Below are positions 24,620-32,269 of a stretch of 38,615 nucleotides of DNA, one piece after another; the first letter of the stretch is position 1, and every line of letters starts with the position of its first letter. The notes under the pieces were generated by a model. The model was not told the DNA's origin, did not search any database, and saw only the letters and a list, made by a program, of their open reading frames with translations. Source of the stretch: Alistipes sp. (GTDB lineage Bacteria; Bacteroidota; Bacteroidia; Bacteroidales; Rikenellaceae); NCBI GenBank assembly GCA_017403125.1, contig JAFQOR010000025.1, positions 1 to 38,615 of the forward strand. The letters are read 5' to 3'. The position numbers were made by a program, and so were the translations under genes.

Positions 24620-24650
24620 TTTGTATATTCAGAATATTTTACTAATTTTG
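24620..24650 (+). promoter_or_regulatory. Promoter of the six-gene exported-protein cluster
   Basis: TTTG at 24620-24623, a 19-bp spacer and TAATTTTG at 24643-24650 are a close match to the consensus. The predicted start near 24657 leaves a 5' leader of about 120 nt before the first ATG, longer than for most genes here. Confidence 0.8.
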
Positions 24651-24778
24651 TGTAGGAAACCTATTGTGTGCCCCGTGTGTGGCAGCAGTAGTTGAATCTC
24701 TATGTTTTAAGATGGTGTCATCCTCACGTAGTATTTGAATTATATAGCAAAACAATAAATAACTAAAATTTTACCGTT

Positions 24779-25279
24779 ATGAAGAGACTATTTTTAGTTT
24801 TATGCCTATTGGCGTGTACCTGCATGATTGCCTATGCCGGCAACAAGAAGAAGCAGAAAAAGGCAGACGAGGATACGCAGAACTTTCGATATGAGTTGGA
24901 GTATATCAAGAGTGCGGGTACTGGTTTGGCAAATGTTAAGGTGTGGAGCTACTCGAAGAAGCCCCATATTGCTGCCGAGCAGACCAAAAAGAATGCTATC
25001 CATGGCGTAATCTTCAAGGGCTATGCAGGCTCGGGAGCAACACAACCCGCCTTGGTGCGTGATGCAGCCGGAATGTCGGCACATCCCGAATTTTTTGAGG
25101 CCTTCTTTGCCGAAGGTGGTGACTACATGCGCTACGTTGTAAATGCCGTAGGTACGCCCGAGGTAATGAAGGTGGGCAAGGAGTACAAGGTGAGTCAAAT
25201 TATTCAGGTGAATACGGCGCAACTGCGCAAGCACCTCGAACAAGCAGGCATCATTCGCGGTTTGGCAAGCGGCTTCTAA
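24779..25279 (+). CDS. Exported protein of unknown function, cluster gene 1
   Basis: This 166-residue protein has a signal peptide ending near residue 21 (CMIAYA) and a Lys-rich mature start. It is clearly related to cluster gene 3 (26098-26583): both have a Gly-rich strand, a helix with AEQTKKNAIHGVIFKG or AQKQALRDIIFKG, then FFxAFFAExGDxxRxV, and a final amphipathic segment ending in a G-I pattern. The repeated Ala/Gln/Lys helix before FKG recalls the LPP20/FlgP lipoprotein fold. This is only a resemblance. It is the first gene after the cluster promoter and lacks a lipobox, so it is probably soluble in the periplasm. Confidence 0.8.
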   Translation: MKRLFLVLCLLACTCMIAYAGNKKKQKKADEDTQNFRYELEYIKSAGTGLANVKVWSYSKKPHIAAEQTKKNAIHGVIFKGYAGSGATQPALVRDAAGMSAHPEFFEAFFAEGGDYMRYVVNAVGTPEVMKVGKEYKVSQIIQVNTAQLRKHLEQAGIIRGLASGF

Positions 25280-25319
25280 TGCCCGATATGCCGTGTTTCA
25301 CTCAACAACAACGACAACA

Positions 25320-26084
25320 ATGAAAAAACTTATTATTCTCGTGTGCCTCGTATTTAGTGGCGTTTCACTATCGGCACAACAAGTAAAGGATGTTGTCTAT
25401 CTGAATAATGGCAATATTGTAAAGGGTGAGATTGTCTCATCTACCGACACCGAGATAGAGATTCACGCCACAAATGGCGAACTCTACACCTTCCGCAAAA
25501 TCGAGATTCGCAGAATCGATAGCGGCGAGCAGCTCGACGCAATCCCCGACGCCCCCAAGAAGAGTAACTTCGTTCGGTATGGAGAGCGCGAAAAGGGTTA
25601 TTGGGCATCGGTTGATTTGGGCTTGGGTGTAGCTTTGGACCGTTATGCCAAGAACAATACCTCGCCGGCAATACCCATAGACTTGAATGTGGCTATGGGT
25701 TATCGCTTCAACGAGTTTATTATGGTTGGTCTTGGCGCCGGCGTACGCTACTACGCCCATCAGGACGATTTGCGCTACCACAACCAAGAGAAGAATCGCG
25801 ACTATGCATGGTCATTCCCGCTATATGCACAGTTGCGCGGAGCATTTATCTCGGGACATACACGAAGCATGGTCCCCTATTGGCAGCTCTCGGCAGGCTA
25901 TACCGTTAATGACGGTGTGATGATTCAGCCCGCCTTGGGTTTGAGATTCGGAGCAGCTACACGCCACCACTTCACCCTCTCGTTGAGCTACACAGCACAG
26001 CAGGGCTACAAGTATTGCGAGAAGTCCCTTGCCGGAAAGAAGTTCTTGAACTTGGTGCAGATAAGACTTGGTTATCAATTCTAA
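25320..26084 (+). CDS. Outer-membrane beta-barrel protein, cluster gene 2
   Basis: The ATG at 25320 gives 254 residues starting MKKLIILVCLVFSGVSLSAQ, a signal peptide; an ATG at 25293 would add an unlikely Thr-rich tail. The mature N terminus (VVYLNNGNIVKGEIVSSTDT through about residue 66) is a small beta domain common before Bacteroidetes barrels. The rest shows alternating amphipathic strands, typical porin-type segments (YWASVDLGLGVAL, FIMVGLGAGVRYY, VMIQPALGLRFG), and ends in RLGYQF, the C-terminal aromatic signal for BAM insertion. It is probably an 8-stranded barrel in the outer membrane. It may anchor the cluster's complex. Confidence 0.85.
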   Translation: MKKLIILVCLVFSGVSLSAQQVKDVVYLNNGNIVKGEIVSSTDTEIEIHATNGELYTFRKIEIRRIDSGEQLDAIPDAPKKSNFVRYGEREKGYWASVDLGLGVALDRYAKNNTSPAIPIDLNVAMGYRFNEFIMVGLGAGVRYYAHQDDLRYHNQEKNRDYAWSFPLYAQLRGAFISGHTRSMVPYWQLSAGYTVNDGVMIQPALGLRFGAATRHHFTLSLSYTAQQGYKYCEKSLAGKKFLNLVQIRLGYQF

Positions 26085-26097
26085 AAACAACGTGACC

Positions 26098-26583
26098 ATG
26101 AAGAGATATAGTTTAATAGTATTGGTTGCAGCACTCATGCTCGTAGGTTGCACAAAGAGGGTTACTCCCACTATGGGGTCGTTTATCCCTACGGAGACCA
26201 AATTTATGAATAACATTGGTGATGGCTCTATCGTGGTGCGCGCTTGGGGCTTTGGAGCTACAACCGAAGATGCCCGCAATCAGGCACAGAAGCAGGCGCT
26301 GCGCGACATCATATTCAAGGGCGTGAACGTTAATGGCAACGCTATGCTGTCGAAGCCTCTGGTTACCGAGCTTAATGCCGAGCAAAAGTATCAGGCATTC
26401 TTCAACGCATTCTTTGCCGAAAATGGCGATTGGACTCGTTTTGTATCGGCCCAGGACGACTTGACAAAGAAGAGAAACAAGAGGACAGATGAGACGTGGC
26501 AGAAGACGGAGGCTGCGACCGTTCGTGTTCATGTCGCCGAGCTGCAAGGCTATCTTATGGATAAGGGTATCCTCAAACCATAG
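26098..26583 (+). CDS. Lipoprotein paralogous to gene 1, cluster gene 3
   Basis: The ATG at 26098 gives 161 residues, starting 13 bp after the barrel gene. The signal peptide carries a lipobox, LMLVGC, with lipidation expected at C18. The mature protein matches gene 1: VRAWGFGATTEDARNQAQKQ, ALRDIIFKG, FFNAFFAENGDWTRFV, and a C-terminal GYLMDKGILK. The alternating A/Q/K helix suggests the LPP20/FlgP-like lipoprotein fold. Having one lipidated and one soluble paralogue in one operon suggests assembly of a heteromeric complex at the outer membrane. The function is unknown. Confidence 0.8.
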   Translation: MKRYSLIVLVAALMLVGCTKRVTPTMGSFIPTETKFMNNIGDGSIVVRAWGFGATTEDARNQAQKQALRDIIFKGVNVNGNAMLSKPLVTELNAEQKYQAFFNAFFAENGDWTRFVSAQDDLTKKRNKRTDETWQKTEAATVRVHVAELQGYLMDKGILKP

Positions 26584-26657
26584 AGTAGGCTATAACACGT
26601 AGATCTTTGTTCAAGAGATAGACATTAGGAAGTTTATAAATAAAATTATCAGATAAA

Positions 26658-27611
26658 ATGAAGAAGTTATTTTTAATCTCGTGCCTGTGCCTCATGGTAA
26701 GTGCAGCCTTTGGTCAGGCGAAAAAACCTCGTTTGATGGTTGTTCCCAGTGACTCGTGGTGCTACCAAAACGGATATATGCAACAATACGATAATCAGGG
26801 TGTTATTGAGTACATCCCTGATTACAAGCGCGCTCTGGTAGAGTGTAGCGACCTCATTCCCGTAATCTCGGCAATCAACGGTCTTATGGCAGACCGCGAC
26901 TTCCCGCTGGATGACTTGCAGCAGACCATGGCATCTATCAACCGTCAGCAGACGGAGCTTGCCGCCGTAACCAACAAGAGCGGCGACGCCTCGGTAAAGA
27001 GCAACGACCTTATGGAGTTGCGCCAAAGAGCTCGTTGCGACATTATACTCGAACTCACATGGACCGTAAACCATATTGGTCCCAAGCAGTCTATCACCTA
27101 TACACTGCGCGCGTTGGATGCCTACACCAACAACGAGGTGGCATCGGCAGGAGGCACAGGCGACCCATCGAACTGCGTGGTAACAGCAACGCTTCTTACG
27201 GCTGCTGTTAATGCCCACATGGACCTCTTCTGCACCCGTTTGCAGGACCACTTCGACGACCTACTCAAGAACGGTCGAGCTATTGCATTGAATATCAACG
27301 TATTCGATAACGATATGGATATTGACCTTGAAACCGAGTACGATGGCTATGAGTTGCGCGAGATAATCGAGGATTGGGTATATGAGAACACCGTATCGGG
27401 TCGCTATAACCTCATCGACGACAACGAGCTCTACATGGCATTTGACGATGTTCGCATCCCCGTGTATGATGACCGCGATCGTCCCATTGCAGCCAACAAC
27501 TTTGCTCGCGACCTCGCCCGTTTCCTCAAAGGTGAGCCATACAATATCGAGCTTATCAAGGTCATGAATCAAGGCTTGGGTCAGGCGACTCTCGTCATTG
27601 GCAATAAGTAG
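26658..27611 (+). CDS. DUF6175 exported protein, cluster gene 4
   Basis: This 317-residue protein has a signal peptide (MKKLFLISCLCLMVSAAFG). I recognise it as DUF6175 from the start KKPRLMVVPSDSWCYQNGY, the RCDIILELTWTVNHIGPKQS segment and the C-terminal end ELIKVMNQGLGQATLVIGNK. The first strand, hydrophobic then P-S-D, and the later Asp/Glu-rich ELREIIEDWVYENT recall CsgG/LptE-like proteins that polymerise in the outer membrane. This is speculation, and no function has been shown. It lies between the small lipoprotein and the TPR-like gene, within the same transcription unit. Confidence 0.8.
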   Translation: MKKLFLISCLCLMVSAAFGQAKKPRLMVVPSDSWCYQNGYMQQYDNQGVIEYIPDYKRALVECSDLIPVISAINGLMADRDFPLDDLQQTMASINRQQTELAAVTNKSGDASVKSNDLMELRQRARCDIILELTWTVNHIGPKQSITYTLRALDAYTNNEVASAGGTGDPSNCVVTATLLTAAVNAHMDLFCTRLQDHFDDLLKNGRAIALNINVFDNDMDIDLETEYDGYELREIIEDWVYENTVSGRYNLIDDNELYMAFDDVRIPVYDDRDRPIAANNFARDLARFLKGEPYNIELIKVMNQGLGQATLVIGNK

Positions 27612-27637
27612 GAGTAACTCACAAAAACAGTATAAAG

Positions 27638-28606
27638 ATGAAAAGCATACTTAATTCAATAATAGCTTGCGCCTTGCTCTGCACCTCGCTGAACGTAGCA
27701 ATGGCACAAGAGAGCAAGACCGAGGTAACGAACAAGGTCCCCATCTCGGTATATGTCCCCGAGGAGTCATGTGACATTCCGGTAGAGGCACAGAATGCCC
27801 TCAACACAAAGTTGATGACCGCAGCAGCACAGAACGGCATGGGTGCAACATCCGATTTCACGCAGTTCTGTTTGAGCTACACCACAACCAAGACAGGCAT
27901 GCAGGTCCTGCCTGGTGCCCCCACGAAGTATCGTCAGGAGATTGATATCACACTCTATATTGTGGATGTGATGTCTAAAAAGATCTTCAACGCAACAACC
28001 TTCTCGACACATGCCGTAGGCAATAGCGAGACCAAAGCCTATATTGCATGCTTCAATCAGTTGTCGTCGTCGAACAAGAATTTGAAGAGTTTCCTTGTTA
28101 AGACTAACAAGGATATCGTAGATTACTACGAGGGACAGATCGACAACATCATCGCTATTGCAGAGTCGTTGGCAAAGGTTTATAAGTATGAGGAGGCTTT
28201 GTTCCGCCTCTCACTCGTACCCGATGTATGCCCCAGCTACCATAAGGTATTGGAGGTAGCAACAGGCATCTTCCAGAAGTATATCGACGACGAGGCTAAC
28301 CGCAATCTTGCCAAAGCTCGCGCTATATGGAACGCCGGTTTGGACTTCGCAGCAGCTGCCGAGGCTGCCGAGTATCTCGCACTCATCCTCCCCGAGGCAT
28401 CGTGCTACGAAGATGCTATGGCTCTCTCGCAAGAGATTAAGGAGCGCGTAGGTAGCGACATTCAGTACTACCGCGACCTTGAATCACGCGATGCTGACCG
28501 CGCACACGAGATTAGCATGACACAGATTGAGGCATGGCGCCAGGTTGGTGTATCGTATGGTAACAACCAGCGCGACACATACTACAATACCCCTTGGGTA
28601 TTTTAG
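27638..28606 (+). CDS. Exported two-domain protein, cluster gene 5
   Basis: This 322-residue protein has a signal peptide ending around residue 23 (NVAMAQ). The N-terminal half (about 30-165) includes VPISVYVPEESCDIPVEAQN, RQEIDITLYIVDVMSKKIF, and a Phe/Asn-rich helix, a layout similar to FlgT/CsgG-type periplasmic folds. The C-terminal half (about 170-300) is helical: EEALFRLSLVPDVCPSYHKV and DFAAAAEAAEYLALILPEAS suggest TPR-like repeats that bind partners. The end QVGVSYGNNQRDTYYNTPWV is polar. I do not recognise a named family. It is 26 bp after the DUF6175 gene, so clearly in the same operon. Confidence 0.8.
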   Translation: MKSILNSIIACALLCTSLNVAMAQESKTEVTNKVPISVYVPEESCDIPVEAQNALNTKLMTAAAQNGMGATSDFTQFCLSYTTTKTGMQVLPGAPTKYRQEIDITLYIVDVMSKKIFNATTFSTHAVGNSETKAYIACFNQLSSSNKNLKSFLVKTNKDIVDYYEGQIDNIIAIAESLAKVYKYEEALFRLSLVPDVCPSYHKVLEVATGIFQKYIDDEANRNLAKARAIWNAGLDFAAAAEAAEYLALILPEASCYEDAMALSQEIKERVGSDIQYYRDLESRDADRAHEISMTQIEAWRQVGVSYGNNQRDTYYNTPWVF

Positions 28607-28631
28607 TCGATAGCGCATAGGCCACTCTCAC

Positions 28632-28673
28632 AATTTGGGGGCGACCGATATATCTTCGGTTTGCCCCCAAATT
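28632..28673 (+). terminator. Strong hairpin between cluster genes 5 and 6
   Basis: AATTTGGGGGC (28632-28642) pairs perfectly with GCCCCCAAATT (28663-28673), with an inner ACCGA/TCGGT stem. No T run follows, so it may attenuate transcription or block RNA decay rather than fully terminate. Confidence 0.6.
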
Positions 28674-28753
28674 ACAATACCAAATCAGAGAGATTGGTTA
28701 GACATACACGACAAAACAACTACTATTACCCCCCACACACACAATAACCCAAA

Positions 28754-30109
28754 ATGAAGAGATTTCTGTTTGTAGTTGCTGCAATGTTATTTGCCGGCAA
28801 CCTTATGGGCCAAAATGCCGATGGACTAACCGATAGTGGCAAGATTCAGAAGTATCGTCGTAGTTCGCTCTACACGGTGCTTATCACACACTCGAAGCAG
28901 GACCAAGGCACAACCATAAAGAGGGTGTTTATGTCGTTGCCCACTCCCGATAAATTCAATAACCACGACCTCGGGATAAAGGCGTTCGAGTCATCGGTAG
29001 CGAAGCCCAAAAAGAAGGCGTCTGCCAAGCGCGACCAGACTAACCTCGCCGACATCGAGGCGTTTATCAACAAGAATGACATTGCACGCAAGATGATTGC
29101 CAAGTGGTTCAATCGCGACGCTAATGGCAACATGGATGTCGATTTGCTCGTTGAGCGCGGCATGTATAGCGCACAACTAAACGATATTGACGAGGCGCAG
29201 AACAGCGCCTATGGCATCATGAGTCTTGGCGACCAGGGTGAGGAGCTCATCGGCAAGACCTTCCTCTTGGTGAATGATATCACCTATGCCGACAAGGGCG
29301 AGAAGAGCGCAAAGGCGGCAGGTGCACTCCGCTTCTTCGGTGCGCTTTTAGGAGGTGTAACCGGTACGAATATATCGGATCTCACAGATATGGCTGCCGA
29401 CGGTATCAACGAGATTGACGGCTTCGGCGTGAATATCTCATCGTACCTCTTCCGTTTGGATTGGAACGAGGATATGCTTAATACGCTCTATGCTACGCTC
29501 TGGCTCGACGAGAACGTTACCGACGAAGCAAAACGACGCGAACGCATCAATGCATTTGATTTGAGCGACATATTCAAGCTTACGTATGTTGGTTCGACAT
29601 CTACGACAAAGGGCTTCACAGCATCGAAGTCGTTTAGCAAGAAGTCCGAGGAGCAGCAGATGGCTGTTGCTTGCGGACGAGCTCTCGACGAATCTATCCT
29701 CAATTTGCAGCGTGAGTTCGACGAGTTTAAGGTTAGTGTGCCCATTATGAGCATCAACCAGAATGCCCGCACCTGCGAGGTTGCAATAGGTCTTAAAGAG
29801 GGCATCAACGAGAAGTCGAAGTTCGAGGTGCTTATGCAGATAGAGAATGAGGATGGCACTATCAGCTACAATAGAATTGGCACTATTGAGCCCATAGCAG
29901 GCAAGATTTGGGATAACCGCTATGGTGCGTTGGAGATTGCCGAGGCTTATGCTGCCGACGGTCAGAAGGCGAAGAAGGAGGAGGGGGTTGCCGACGGTAA
30001 TGCCTACCTCAAAGCAACAACCTTCAAGATTACATCGGGTAGCGACCGCATCTACCCCGGATGCCTTGTTCGCGAGATTAAGATTCAGAATACCACGAAG
30101 CGAAAGTAG
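28754..30109 (+). CDS. Exported protein of unknown function, cluster gene 6
   Basis: This 451-residue protein has a signal peptide (MKRFLFVVAAMLFAGNLMG). The mature region starts with a YRRSSLYTVLITHSKQDQGT segment, then LPTPDKFNNHDLGIKAFE. A linker rich in Lys, then a helix with MIAKWFNRDANGNMDVDLL and the hydrophobic patch AGALRFFGALLGGVTGTNIS, possibly membrane-associating. A final beta domain holds VGSTSTTKGFTASK, ARTCEVAIGLKEGINEKSKF and YPGCLVREI. I recognise it only as a conserved Bacteroidales protein without a function. It has a 147-bp gap from gene 5 with a hairpin in between and a strong terminator after it, so it may be partly uncoupled in expression. Confidence 0.8.
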   Translation: MKRFLFVVAAMLFAGNLMGQNADGLTDSGKIQKYRRSSLYTVLITHSKQDQGTTIKRVFMSLPTPDKFNNHDLGIKAFESSVAKPKKKASAKRDQTNLADIEAFINKNDIARKMIAKWFNRDANGNMDVDLLVERGMYSAQLNDIDEAQNSAYGIMSLGDQGEELIGKTFLLVNDITYADKGEKSAKAAGALRFFGALLGGVTGTNISDLTDMAADGINEIDGFGVNISSYLFRLDWNEDMLNTLYATLWLDENVTDEAKRRERINAFDLSDIFKLTYVGSTSTTKGFTASKSFSKKSEEQQMAVACGRALDESILNLQREFDEFKVSVPIMSINQNARTCEVAIGLKEGINEKSKFEVLMQIENEDGTISYNRIGTIEPIAGKIWDNRYGALEIAEAYAADGQKAKKEEGVADGNAYLKATTFKITSGSDRIYPGCLVREIKIQNTTKRK

Positions 30110-30130
30110 AACGTCGTAACTCTATAATAC

Positions 30131-30172
30131 AAAGATGCCGACCAAGAACATTTTTGGTCGGCATCTTTTTTA
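30131..30172 (+). terminator. Terminator of the six-gene cluster
   Basis: A perfect 15-bp stem pairs 30131-30145 with 30154-30168 around an 8-nt loop, followed by T residues to 30172. It could also stop the leftward lipoprotein gene that ends at 30214. Confidence 0.92.
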
Positions 30173-30213: not shown

Positions 30214-32175
30214 TTAGCCGAGCGATTGGAGCAGGGCCATACCATCCGGGACAATCTCCCATGTCTTGCCTTTGATGTGGAGTGCCATAGGCAAGTATCT
30301 GTAGCTCTCGTCTATGAGCATGATGATATACTCTGCCTTCGCATCGTGAGCCTTGTTTATCTCAACCAAATCCTCCAATGCCGACTTCCATACGAGCTTC
30401 GCTGCCTCCTCTACACCGGGCTCGGTGGCTGCACAAATCTTATAACCTTCGTTGAAGGCGTTGTAGTTTGCATTACGCACCAAAACAGATTGGAGTGTCT
30501 CCCATGACTCGATGTCGCCCGAGTTGTAACAGCATACGGGCTCATACTTCTCGCTAAAACGCTTTACGATAGGCAGAGGGTACAGAGGCACATCATAGAC
30601 GTGGTCGATATTCTCCTTGATATGCGAGCTTCCCTTGATAATCTCGGCCTGTGCCAACTCGTGGTGCGTCTTGAAGCTGACGGTGCAGTCCAGATATACA
30701 GGATCATTGCCCAAAGAATATGAGTTGCCAACAGCATAGGTTACAGCCTGCGTCAGTTCACAATTCACGCGGGTGATTTCGGGAGGAAGCTGATAATCGG
30801 GATTTGTGCCCCAATGTGTCTGCTCTACGGTAAATGTCGAGCAGTAGTTCCAATCGATATAGTCCTTATAGTTTGTTGTGTGGTTCACAGGCATGTCCTT
30901 CTCCGATACCGCTACAACGGTCGAGGGGAGCGTGATGCTGAAATCGAAGCTGCCGGTTACCAGAACTCCCGACGAGCCACCTGCAACCGAGATGCCGCCG
31001 CCCAGCGTCGTGCTACCCGGATCGTGCGTTACAGAGTAGCTGCCAGACTCCGCAACAGGCACAGGCGAGTATATCGTACTGTTATTCTCCATAGAGAAGT
31101 CTTTGGCTTTGGTCGTCAAACTTGTCTTCACCGTGGGACCGTAGTAGTAACCACCCGAGTAGCGGTAGTTATAAGCAGCTTCCTCATGAATAAGTGCGTG
31201 TGTGTGGTGCGTATTAGTCGCATCGAAGCCCTCCATAATGGTGATATCATAGATATCCTTGCCCACCTTCTCATTCCAACCAGATATTACCGATAGACGC
31301 ACCAATGCCTCGACATAGTCCGTAACGGGGCAATCACTGTAACTGCACCATCCATAACGCTTACCCATATCATGCTCAACAGCGATCATAGGCCTGAAAT
31401 CGACCGTTGCGCTGTACGAGTTATCCTCATCGCCACGTGTCGCACCAAAAGCGCTGTGCAACGGCTGTGCATTGCCATAGTAGTAACGGTTAAGCCACTC
31501 GCTTGCCTGCTCGGCAAGACGACCTAACTGATAATCTGTGGGGGTGAACGTAATGGTGTCCTCTGTCGGATTCAACGCCTCCTCAACAGCCTCGTCGCCC
31601 TCTGCGTCCTTCACAATGTTTGTGGTGTTGTACACCTTCTTCTGCGAACCAATAGTATTGCAAAGCAGAGCATCGCCATCAGCCTTGATGATCATAATTA
31701 CAATATCCTTAAACGATGCGGCAACATCGTCCGTAATCTCCGCAGGCTCACTGCCTACCAATACGGCATTTAGCTTTGCTACAAGTTGCAAAGCACTCTT
31801 TCCGGGATTAACGAAGATTGCGGCACAGCCCTTCTCCCACAGCGAAGCTATGGCTGCCAACCTTTCGTCGCTGGTCAATATTGCAGCAGAGCTATCCTCG
31901 TTGAGCAATACGGCGTGTGTGTCATCCGTAATCTCTGTCGAGATATTGGGAAAACGCTTCTGCAAGAAGCCTACAATCTGGTCACTGCTATTGCTCAATA
32001 GCGCTACATTACCACTGAATAGGGTTTCAACCTTATCGGGTACGGGCTCCTCCGGTTTGGGAGTGGGAGTGGGAGCGGGGTTTACTGATGGCACATCATC
32101 GTCCTTGGTACATCCCAATGCGAAGATGGCAAAGACCGCAATAAATAGCAGTCGGTGAAGCATAATTCTCATAGG
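30214..32175 (-). CDS. Large exported lipoprotein, possible beta-pore-forming (leukocidin-like) protein
   Basis: The ATG at 32175 gives 653 residues. The start is set by the promoter at 32239-32269, since a longer frame would begin inside it. The signal peptide ends in FALGC, a lipobox, followed by DDD and a Pro/Thr linker, typical of surface-exported Bacteroidetes lipoproteins. An N-terminal region (about 45-200) is alpha/beta. A central beta-rich region holds a Gly/Ser-rich, alternating stretch (TLGGGISVAGGSSGVLVTGS and SFDFSITLPS), flanked by aromatic-rich strands. This layout recalls the pre-stem of leukocidin/V. cholerae cytolysin toxins, but no family motif is certain. If right, it would be a surface or secreted pore former; otherwise it is an uncharacterised surface lipoprotein. 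Confidence 0.7.
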   Translation of the reverse strand, partial: PMRIMLHRLLFIAVFAIFALGCTKDDDVPSVNPAPTPTPKPEEPVPDKVETLFSGNVALLSNSSDQIVGFLQKRFPNISTEITDDTHAVLLNEDSSAAILTSDERLAAIASLWEKGCAAIFVNPGKSALQLVAKLNAVLVGSEPAEITDDVAASFKDIVIMIIKADGDALLCNTIGSQKKVYNTTNIVKDAEGDEAVEEALNPTEDTITFTPTDYQLGRLAEQASEWLNRYYYGNAQPLHSAFGATRGDEDNSYSATVDFRPMIAVEHDMGKRYGWCSYSDCPVTDYVEALVRLSVISGWNEKVGKDIYDITIMEGFDATNTHHTHALIHEEAAYNYRYSGGYYYGPTVKTSLTTKAKDFSMENNSTIYSPVPVAESGSYSVTHDPGSTTLGGGISVAGGSSGVLVTGSFDFSITLPSTVVAVSEKDMPVNHTTNYKDYIDWNYCSTFTVEQTHWGTNPDYQLPPEITRVNCELTQAVTYAVGNSYSLGNDPVYLDCTVSFKTHHELAQAEIIKGSSHIKENIDHVYDVPLYPLPIVKRFSEKYEPVCCYNSGDIESWETLQSVLVRNANYNAFNEGYKICAATEPGVEEAAKLVWKSALEDLVEINKAHDAKAEYIIMLIDESYRYLPMALHIKGKTWEIVPDGMALLQSLG

Positions 32176-32238
32176 TTGTCGTTGTTTAATAATAGTTTTT
32201 TTCTGCACTAAAATTGATATTATATCTATTCTCGGCGA

Positions 32239-32269
32239 CAAAAATAGGCAAAAAGGTTTACATATGCAA
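32239..32269 (-). promoter_or_regulatory. Promoter of the large lipoprotein gene
   Basis: The reverse strand has TTG (32269-32267), a 20-bp spacer and TATTTTTG (32246-32239). The transcript would start near 32232, so translation must use the ATG at 32175. Confidence 0.8.

What the first reader, a model, noticed from the sequence alone, without database searches (positions are those of the whole stretch)
24620..30172. Six-gene operon of exported proteins: possible undescribed envelope system
One strong promoter precedes six consecutive same-strand genes and a strong terminator ends the run. All six products carry signal peptides: a soluble protein, an outer-membrane barrel, a lipoprotein related to the first, a DUF6175 protein, a two-domain protein with TPR-like helices, and a 451-residue protein. 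The mix of barrel, paired small lipoprotein-like proteins and periplasmic proteins resembles outer-membrane complexes such as FlgO/P/T or CsgG-linked machines, but no member of those systems is recognisable. The cluster is likely conserved in Bacteroidales; its function is unknown to me.
Basis: partly seen in the sequence, partly recalled or inferred. Interest (0 to 1): 0.75.

Follow-up and report, generated by a model that had tools for sequence, protein, structure and literature searches.

The report
Undescribed outer-membrane scaffold gene cluster
A set of exported-protein genes that has stayed together across the bacterial phylum Bacteroidota appears to build an unstudied, probably ring-like assembly at the outer membrane, with relatives that carry parts related to flagellar outer rings and the curli exporter.

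Summary
In detail: six same-strand genes (24779-30109), one Bacteroidota-type promoter (24620-24650), a strong terminator (30131-30168), export signals on all six products. The cluster is conserved: in 392 genomes of the window's order (taken to be Bacteroidales), DUF6175 (g4) is in 95, g5 in 93, both in 91; g6 is in 76, of which 75 have g4. g5 lies directly downstream at 95 of 106 g4 places. The g1/g3-type domain is fused to DUF6175 in 15 of 91 tree rows (at least 4 changes).

The window's own proteins match no FlgO/P/T or CsgG model. Relatives do. In one clade a CsgG/LpoB-family protein, some with weak FlgT matches, takes the place of g6; no read cluster has both. LPP20 (FlgP-family) genes stand beside 37 of 91 clusters. 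In a distant lineage an LPP20 domain is fused to a g5-like region.

Best reading: an undescribed outer-membrane-tethered periplasmic scaffold or ring made of CsgG/LpoB/FlgT-like and LPP20-like modules. It fails membership tests for CsgG, LpoB and LPP20. ExbB/ExbD genes upstream in 10 of 91 loci allow a bolder idea: a scaffold for a proton-driven motor.

The parts
24620..24650 (+). Bacteroidota-type promoter, TTTG-N19-TAATTTTG
   Evidence: 8 such patterns in the window against 0.52 expected; no other between 24651 and 30172; consensus recalled
24779..25279 (+). g1, exported 166-aa protein of the g1/g3 (g13) family
   Evidence: ORF; paralogue of g3, 4e-13; family in 83 of 91 loci, fusions included
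25320..26084 (+). g2, exported protein with C-terminal OM-barrel-like domain
   Evidence: OMP_b-brl 7.6e-5 below cut-off; NF047433 N-terminal domain 1.5e-9 below cut-off; in 5 of 91 loci, all with short g6, and in L200
26098..26583 (+). g3, lipoprotein of the g13 family
   Evidence: lipobox LVGC; in 20 tandem g13 pairs the second copy is lipoprotein-like in 14, the first in 5 (loose rule)
26658..27611 (+). g4, DUF6175 (PF19672)
   Evidence: 336 bits, cut-off 23; in 95 of 392 genomes over cut-off
27638..28606 (+). g5, exported protein; N-terminal region with CsgG-type similarity, C-terminal TPR-like helices in the family
   Evidence: family profile against cluster CsgG-type profile 5.4e-6; TPR-type matches in family members
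28632..28673 (+). hairpin between g5 and g6, no T run; possible attenuator or mRNA stabiliser
   Evidence: -27.2 kcal/mol, z -6.5; conservation not tested
28754..30109 (+). g6, exported 451-aa protein, short form without C-terminal barrel
   Evidence: family in 76 of 392 genomes, 75 with g4; family profile region 259-361 matches the C-terminal part of the cluster CsgG-type profile, 8.6e-5
30131..30168 (+). intrinsic terminator hairpin, followed by T run
   Evidence: -26.4 kcal/mol, z -9.8

Best explanation
The cluster encodes one envelope system: an outer-membrane-tethered periplasmic scaffold, probably ring- or disk-like. Shown: the genes travel together on one strand and in a mostly fixed order across Bacteroidota; the g1/g3-type domain and DUF6175 are repeatedly one polypeptide; g6 and a CsgG/LpoB-family protein are alternatives in the cluster; LPP20 proteins recur beside it, and one is fused to a g5-like region in a distant lineage. 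Inferred: the g1/g3 protein binds DUF6175; the lipid anchor of g3 and a beta-barrel (the C-terminus of long g6, or perhaps g2 in the window type) hold the assembly at the outer membrane; CsgG/LpoB/FlgT-like domains of g5 and g6 (perhaps g4) make subunit contacts as in FlgT or CsgG rings; the TPR helices of g5 bind a partner. What it does for the cell is unknown; my choice is an envelope support on which another machine, or outer-membrane maintenance, is organised.
For: Co-occurrence in 392 genomes: g4 95, g5 93, both 91; g6 76, of these 75 with g4; g5 within 1 kb downstream on the same strand at 95 of 106 g4 places, median gap 30 nt; g6 within 6 kb and same strand at 71 of 106 (59 upstream). 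Of 91 loci: g5 84, g13 83, g6 61, CsgG type 17, both g6 and CsgG 0. g13-g4 fusions in 15 of 91 tree rows, at least 4 changes, and in 4 of 4 f139 loci with a DUF6175 match outside the order. In those 4 the next gene has LPP20 at its N-terminus and a g5-like region at its C-terminus (5e-9 to 3e-4); LPP20 is over the Pfam cut-off in the 3 of 4 given, and in all 4. CsgG-type proteins: of 15 of the 17, at E up to 0.1, 10 match LpoB, 7 CsgG, 4 FlgT_C and 2 FlgT_M; both LpoB and CsgG pass their cut-offs in L084, L085, L087 and L088. Profile comparison without signal peptides: CsgG type to g5 5.4e-6, g6 8.6e-5, g4 3.6e-4, against 0.054-0.72 for the reversed profile with nine families and 0.029-0.37 for six other families. 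Neighbours xlpp and x430 match an LPP20 profile at 2.4e-13 and 7.8e-11. One operon. Export signals. FlgP, Lpp20 and FlgT share an SHS2-like fold, and FlgP and FlgT form OM-associated rings (PMC12222027, passages).
Against: No structure or interface was obtained. g1/g3 show no significant similarity to LPP20 (0.03; under 1% probability against the LPP20-type neighbours); LPP20 is not among the 25 of 55 Pfam families listed for 80 members. CsgG and LpoB profiles built outside the cluster do not match g4, g5 or g6 (0.029-0.83), so that link rests on the cluster's own CsgG-type proteins; pairwise hhalign E-values are not calibrated. Not all CsgG-type proteins pass Pfam: L034 matched no family and L093 only LptE; L219 is below cut-off and the LpoB match of L218 just below. 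FlgT structures are near misses (0.034-0.095). The g6/CsgG swap is one change on the tree, and exclusion holds per cluster only: G064 (L052, L138) and G328 (L048, L139) have both types in one genome. 14 of 91 tree rows have neither. The window genome has no LPP20, CsgG or LpoB match and no x430/xlpp match, so the window version lacks these parts.
Confidence: 0.5

Rival explanations
1. A CsgG-type export apparatus: g6 or its CsgG-type substitute forms an outer-membrane pore, and g1/g3, g4 and g5 are periplasmic accessory factors for an unidentified substrate.
For: CsgG over cut-off in sister clusters; long g6 forms have a barrel-like C-terminus (35 of 60 rows long; OMP_b-brl in 3 of 59 members). 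A 172-235-aa exported protein family lies just before the CsgG-type gene in L084-L089 (L085, L126 and L127 have a 196-aa ORF there) and could be a substrate.
Against: In the commoner g6 type no comparable small gene recurs widely in the list (families in at least 4 loci, ORFs of 80 aa or more, so a shorter or fast-changing substrate would be missed). CsgG-type members are lipoprotein-like in only 2 of 17, unlike CsgG (recalled).
Confidence: 0.16
2. An LpoB-like system that activates or positions peptidoglycan synthases from the outer membrane.
For: LpoB matches 10 of 15 CsgG-type members, up to 3.5e-9; the NCBIfam LpoB model matches 8 of 15, the one shown with 32 bits against a cut-off of 110.55.
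Against: No LpoB match in the window genome. Neighbours were not searched for penicillin-binding proteins.
Confidence: 0.13
3. A lipid or LPS/outer-membrane-protein assembly accessory, LptE-like.
For: One CsgG-type protein (L093) matches LptE over cut-off, 7.4e-6; the best, non-significant PDB match of the g5 profile is LptE, 0.05. The FapH ring in Helicobacter protects the OM barrier (PMC11756786, passages).
Against: One of 15 members only.
Confidence: 0.1
4. Exported proteins that share a promoter but not a function.
For: g2 and the x430/xlpp, WG and SPFH neighbours come and go.
Against: 91 of 97 genomes that have g4 or g5 have both, and g5 adjoins g4 at 95 of 106 places; repeated fusions.
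Confidence: 0.05

Closest known systems
FlgO/FlgP/FlgT flagellar outer rings and disks (Vibrio, Campylobacter)
   Same: Exported, probably OM-associated proteins; LPP20-family proteins beside 37 of 91 clusters; weak FlgT_M/FlgT_C matches in some CsgG-type proteins; a lipoprotein plus a soluble paralogue
   Different: Window proteins match none of these families; g1/g3 not significantly LPP20; extra families DUF6175, g5, g6. Flagellar genes were not searched for
CsgG curli exporter
   Same: CsgG domain over cut-off in sister clusters, at the usual place of g6
   Different: No CsgG match in window g6 or window genome; CsgG-type members mostly lack a lipobox. Curli subunits, CsgE and CsgF were not searched for
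LpoB activator of penicillin-binding protein 1b
   Same: LpoB domain over cut-off in sister clusters
   Different: No match in the window genome; some cluster proteins have a further C-terminal part with a weak FlgT_C match
Helicobacter HP1454 and HP1456 (Lpp20)
   Same: An LPP20-like first domain joined to further domains in one exported protein (HP1454; PMC11756786, passages), as in the f139 LPP20+g5 protein
   Different: No sequence comparison was made; partners differ as far as the passages tell
PF19672, DUF6175
   Same: g4 is a full-length member
   Different: Family of unknown function; no paper in the held library names it

Membership tests
DUF6175 (PF19672) | score over curated cut-off along the whole model | tested here: met
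   336 bits against 23, profile 1-293 of 293
LPP20/FlgP (PF02169) | LPP20 domain in g1/g3 or elsewhere in the window genome | tested here: not met
   no PF02169 match in the window genome; g1/g3 family against an LPP20 profile 0.03
LPP20/FlgP (PF02169) | LPP20 domain in conserved cluster neighbours of relatives | tested here: met
   23 of 42 xlpp/x430 proteins match at E up to 1, best 4e-5; the ones shown singly are below cut-off; profile comparison 2.4e-13 and 7.8e-11; f139 LPP20+g5 proteins over cut-off in 3 of 3 tested
FlgT | FlgT_N, FlgT_M and FlgT_C domains | tested here: inconclusive
   FlgT_C in 4 of 15 and FlgT_M in 2 of 15 CsgG-type members at E up to 0.1; FlgT_C 17.7 bits under its cut-off of 27; PDB FlgT 0.034-0.095; window proteins none
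Flagellar outer rings FlgO/P/T | presence of a flagellum | not tested
   flagellar genes were not searched in the window genome
CsgG | CsgG domain over cut-off | tested here: not met
   window genome has no PF03783 match; met in sister clusters by L084, L085, L087, L088 and L218
CsgG curli system | curli subunits and CsgE/CsgF partners | not tested
   no search made
LpoB | LpoB domain over cut-off | tested here: not met
   window genome has no PF13036 match; met in sister clusters
ring-forming scaffold (works like) | oligomeric ring at the outer membrane | not testable with these tools
   structure prediction switched off

The most novel reading that the evidence does not exclude
The cluster builds an outer-membrane ring or disk that scaffolds an ExbB/ExbD proton-driven motor in bacteria without flagella, as FlgP/FlgT disks and rings support stator units of flagellar motors. 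Basis: ExbB and ExbD genes stand upstream on the same strand in 10 of 91 loci, needing 5 changes on the DUF6175 tree, one of them in the window's genus (L023). Against: in 9 of the 10 an alkaline-phosphatase-type gene lies between (the L021 copy tested), so this may be a common insertion spot, and the window genome keeps its three ExbD matches on other contigs. That ExbB/ExbD and MotA/MotB are related, and that these bacteria lack flagella, is recalled.
Probability: 0.1. Interest if true: 0.9.

Novelty: new variant of a known kind. Interest (0 to 1): 0.6.

Why it matters
About a quarter of the sampled species of the order (95 of 392) carry a multi-protein envelope system whose only named family, DUF6175, occurs in no paper of the held library. 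It ties a family of unknown function to the CsgG/LpoB/FlgT/LPP20 group of outer-membrane proteins and suggests that ring-type parts known from flagella and curli serve other machines. The gene set is small enough to express and purify as a whole.

Tried and rejected
PDB sequence searches with profiles of g1/g3, g4, g5 and g6 gave no relative; the lowest E-values (VP0806 0.007 and kinesin light chain) fall on the helical repeat part of g5.

First-pass profile comparisons gave up to 80% probability between several cluster families (x430-g4 79.5, g13-x430 77.6). Apart from xlpp-x430 these vanished after signal peptides were cut, so only trimmed comparisons are used.

Idea that g2 is the barrel split off from long g6: g2 occurs only with short g6 (5 of 5 loci), but the barrels show no detectable similarity (0.19; reversed controls 0.044 and 0.066). 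Left open.

Idea that g6/CsgG replacement happened often: rejected, 1 change on the tree.

Mobile element: no DUF6175 match in 72,556 plasmid records; one in 50,697 phage records, an unverified scaffold.

Rows dropped: of 93 loci fetched, L030 (its g4 ORF was displaced by an overlapping g5 ORF in my gene caller) and L035 (contig end) are not in the 91; L137 and L139 are not on the tree (short g4 stretch), whose 91 rows come from 89 loci. Genome counts leave out matches weaker than about 1e-20: G197 for g4; G108, G111, G160 for g5; G148, G152, G422, G425 for g6. A13 holds 15 of 17 CsgG-type proteins, without L087 and L092. The LPP20 reference set has 30 members, of which 3 (L116, L117, L124) are the f139 proteins themselves; their match is partly circular, the Pfam matches are not. 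Searches used g2 and g3 from their second codon.
Full report
What is there. The window is a whole contig (C23) of a 1.84-Mb, 88% complete genome. Its order is taken to be Bacteroidales: the two named loci found with g4 are uncultured Bacteroidales, at 46% identity, so this is an inference. Six ORFs run on + from 24779 to 30109. A promoter of the form TTTG-N19-TAnnTTTG lies at 24620-24650; eight such patterns occur in the window against 0.52 expected, and no other lies between 24651 and 30172. A 17-pair hairpin with a T run ends the operon (30131-30168, z -9.8). A second strong hairpin without T run sits between g5 and g6 (28632-28673, z -6.5). All six products have export signals by a simple rule of mine. 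g3 has a clear lipobox; the call for g1 is doubtful.

The proteins. g1 and g3 are paralogues (4e-13). g4 is DUF6175. g2 has a barrel match below its cut-off. g1, g3, g5 and g6 pass no Pfam cut-off. Larger sets, at E up to 1: g1/g3 family, 80 members, nothing convincing in the 25 of 55 families listed; g6, 59 members, OMP_b-brl in 3; g5, 56 members, TPR-type matches in 29 and 13.

Conservation. PF19672 is in 7 of 37 genomes of the window's genus (own included) and in 14 of 61 relatives. In 392 genomes of the order, weak matches left out, g4 is in 95, g5 in 93, both in 91, g6 in 76 and of these 75 with g4. g5 is within 1 kb downstream on the same strand at 95 of 106 g4 places, median gap 30 nt. 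g6 is within 6 kb on the same strand at 71 of 106, upstream in 59; 20 of 95 g6 places have no g4 within 6 kb. Of 93 loci fetched 91 could be read: g5 in 84, g1/g3 family in 83, g6 in 61, CsgG type in 17, x430 in 35, xlpp in 22 (either in 37), ExbD in 10, g2 in 5. The usual order is g6, one or two g1/g3-family genes, g4, g5, then LPP20-type genes. The window order (g1, g2, g3, g4, g5, g6) is a minority form. In the phylum sample, 8 of 197 other genomes have DUF6175. In the eight regions fetched, g1/g3-type, g4 and g5-type sequences adjoin, with g6 in L217, weak g6 in L220 and L215 (in L215 some 5 kb away), and CsgG type in L218 and L219.

Patchiness. On a quick tree of 91 DUF6175 rows, the eight own-genus rows need 6 changes, at least 5 forced by well-supported branches. 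Loss, transfer or both must be common. Plasmid records have no match.

Fusions. The g1/g3-type domain and DUF6175 form one ORF in 14 of 91 loci, or 15 of 91 tree rows needing at least 4 changes, and in 4 of 4 f139 loci with a DUF6175 match outside the order. In those four the following gene has an LPP20 domain at its N-terminus and a g5-like region at its C-terminus (g5 profile 5e-9 to 3e-4). Three were given to Pfam and pass the LPP20 cut-off; the fourth passes. My own LPP20 profile contains three of these proteins, so its match there is partly circular. Two fusions thus link g1/g3 to g4 and LPP20 to g5.

The CsgG type. 17 of 91 loci hold a CsgG/LpoB-type gene and no g6; none has both among the genes read around g4. 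It stands directly before the g1/g3 or g4 gene in 15 of 17; in L092 it is a short match in a longer protein behind g5, in L139 it lies four genes downstream. L084, L085, L087 and L088 pass the Pfam cut-offs of both LpoB and CsgG, while L034 matched nothing and L093 only LptE. Of 15 members, at E up to 0.1, 10 match LpoB, 7 CsgG, 4 FlgT_C and 2 FlgT_M. Of six PDB matches at E up to 1, four are FlgT entries at 0.034-0.095, aligned over FlgT's middle and C-terminal parts; not significant. The 16 such loci on the tree need one change, so this is one replacement. Genomes G064 and G328 carry both types at separate places (L052/L138, L048/L139).

Remote links to g4-g6. With signal peptides cut, the CsgG-type profile (16 proteins) matches g5 (5.4e-6), g6 (8.6e-5) and g4 (3.6e-4) in the later part of the CsgG core, for g6 running on into the FlgT_C-like part. 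Six other families give 0.029-0.37 and the reversed profile 0.054-0.72. CsgG and LpoB profiles built from genes elsewhere confirm the CsgG type (2.6e-7, 1.5e-7) but do not reach g4, g5 or g6 (0.029-0.83). I hold the g5 and g6 links likely and the g4 link possible. For g1/g3, likeness to LPP20 is not shown: 0.03 against 0.37 reversed.

Membrane anchors. In 20 tandem g1/g3 pairs the second copy is lipoprotein-like in 14 and the first in 5 (loose rule). Long g6 forms (35 of 60 rows) end in a barrel-like stretch; 25 of 32 end in F. g2 occurs only with short g6 (5 of 5), but no sequence similarity links the two barrels.

Mechanism. The most likely reading is an outer-membrane-tethered scaffold: a g1/g3-DUF6175 unit, g5 as adaptor with CsgG-like and TPR parts, g6 as the CsgG/FlgT-like subunit. 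Papers seen in passages say that FlgP, Lpp20 and FlgT share an SHS2-like fold and that FlgP and FlgT form OM-associated rings (PMC12222027), that FlgT makes the H ring and helps T-ring assembly in Vibrio (PMC3872333), and that a lipoprotein ring in Helicobacter protects the OM barrier (PMC11756786). The ring here is an inference from such relatives.

Motor idea. ExbB and ExbD genes stand upstream in 10 of 91 loci, 5 changes on the tree. In nine of the ten a gene of the alkaline-phosphatase type lies between (L021 copy tested), and an asparaginase-like gene (name by eye) lies beyond in 9 loci. The block may be an ordinary neighbourhood or insertion spot. The window genome has three ExbD matches on other contigs.

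Literature. No held paper contains DUF6175, LPP20 together with CsgG, or three of FlgT, TolB, CsgG, LpoB. The library lacks most subscription journals.

Verdict. The finding is real and, as far as these searches show, undescribed. Function is open. I file it as a new variant of the CsgG/LpoB/FlgT/LPP20 kind of envelope assembly by likeness of parts in relatives, not as a member of any of those systems, because the window version fails the CsgG, LpoB and LPP20 tests.

Noticed in passing
30214-32241 (-): Convergent 652-675-aa gene with no Pfam match at E up to 1; a homologue stands at the same place behind g6 in L003 (11458-12330 -).
   Followed up: no
L200 (MT836698.1): An unverified 9-kb 'Bacteriophage sp.' scaffold from human faeces carries a 580-aa ORF, then g6-g13-g2-g13-g4-g5; probably a mislabelled bacterial contig.
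   Followed up: partly
28632-28673: Strong hairpin without T run between g5 and g6; possible attenuator or mRNA end.
   Followed up: no
L031 and L032: The same stretch, with a distant g4-g5 pair whose products look like lipoproteins, occurs on two contigs of genome G034; a duplication or an assembly artefact.
   Followed up: no
L028, L029, L128: SPFH-type genes (Band_7_1 and GYF_2 tested in the L029 copy) stand inside some clusters.
   Followed up: no
L023, L043, L049, L052, L072, L076: WG-repeat-type proteins (PF14903 tested in the L076 copy) stand near g5 and g6.
   Followed up: no
L084-L089: A 172-235-aa exported protein family of unknown kind precedes the CsgG-type gene.
   Followed up: no
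L093 6822-7595: A CsgG-type protein of the cluster passes the Pfam cut-off of LptE (7.4e-6).
   Followed up: no
L090 and L091: Two g13-g4 fusion genes in one cluster.
   Followed up: no
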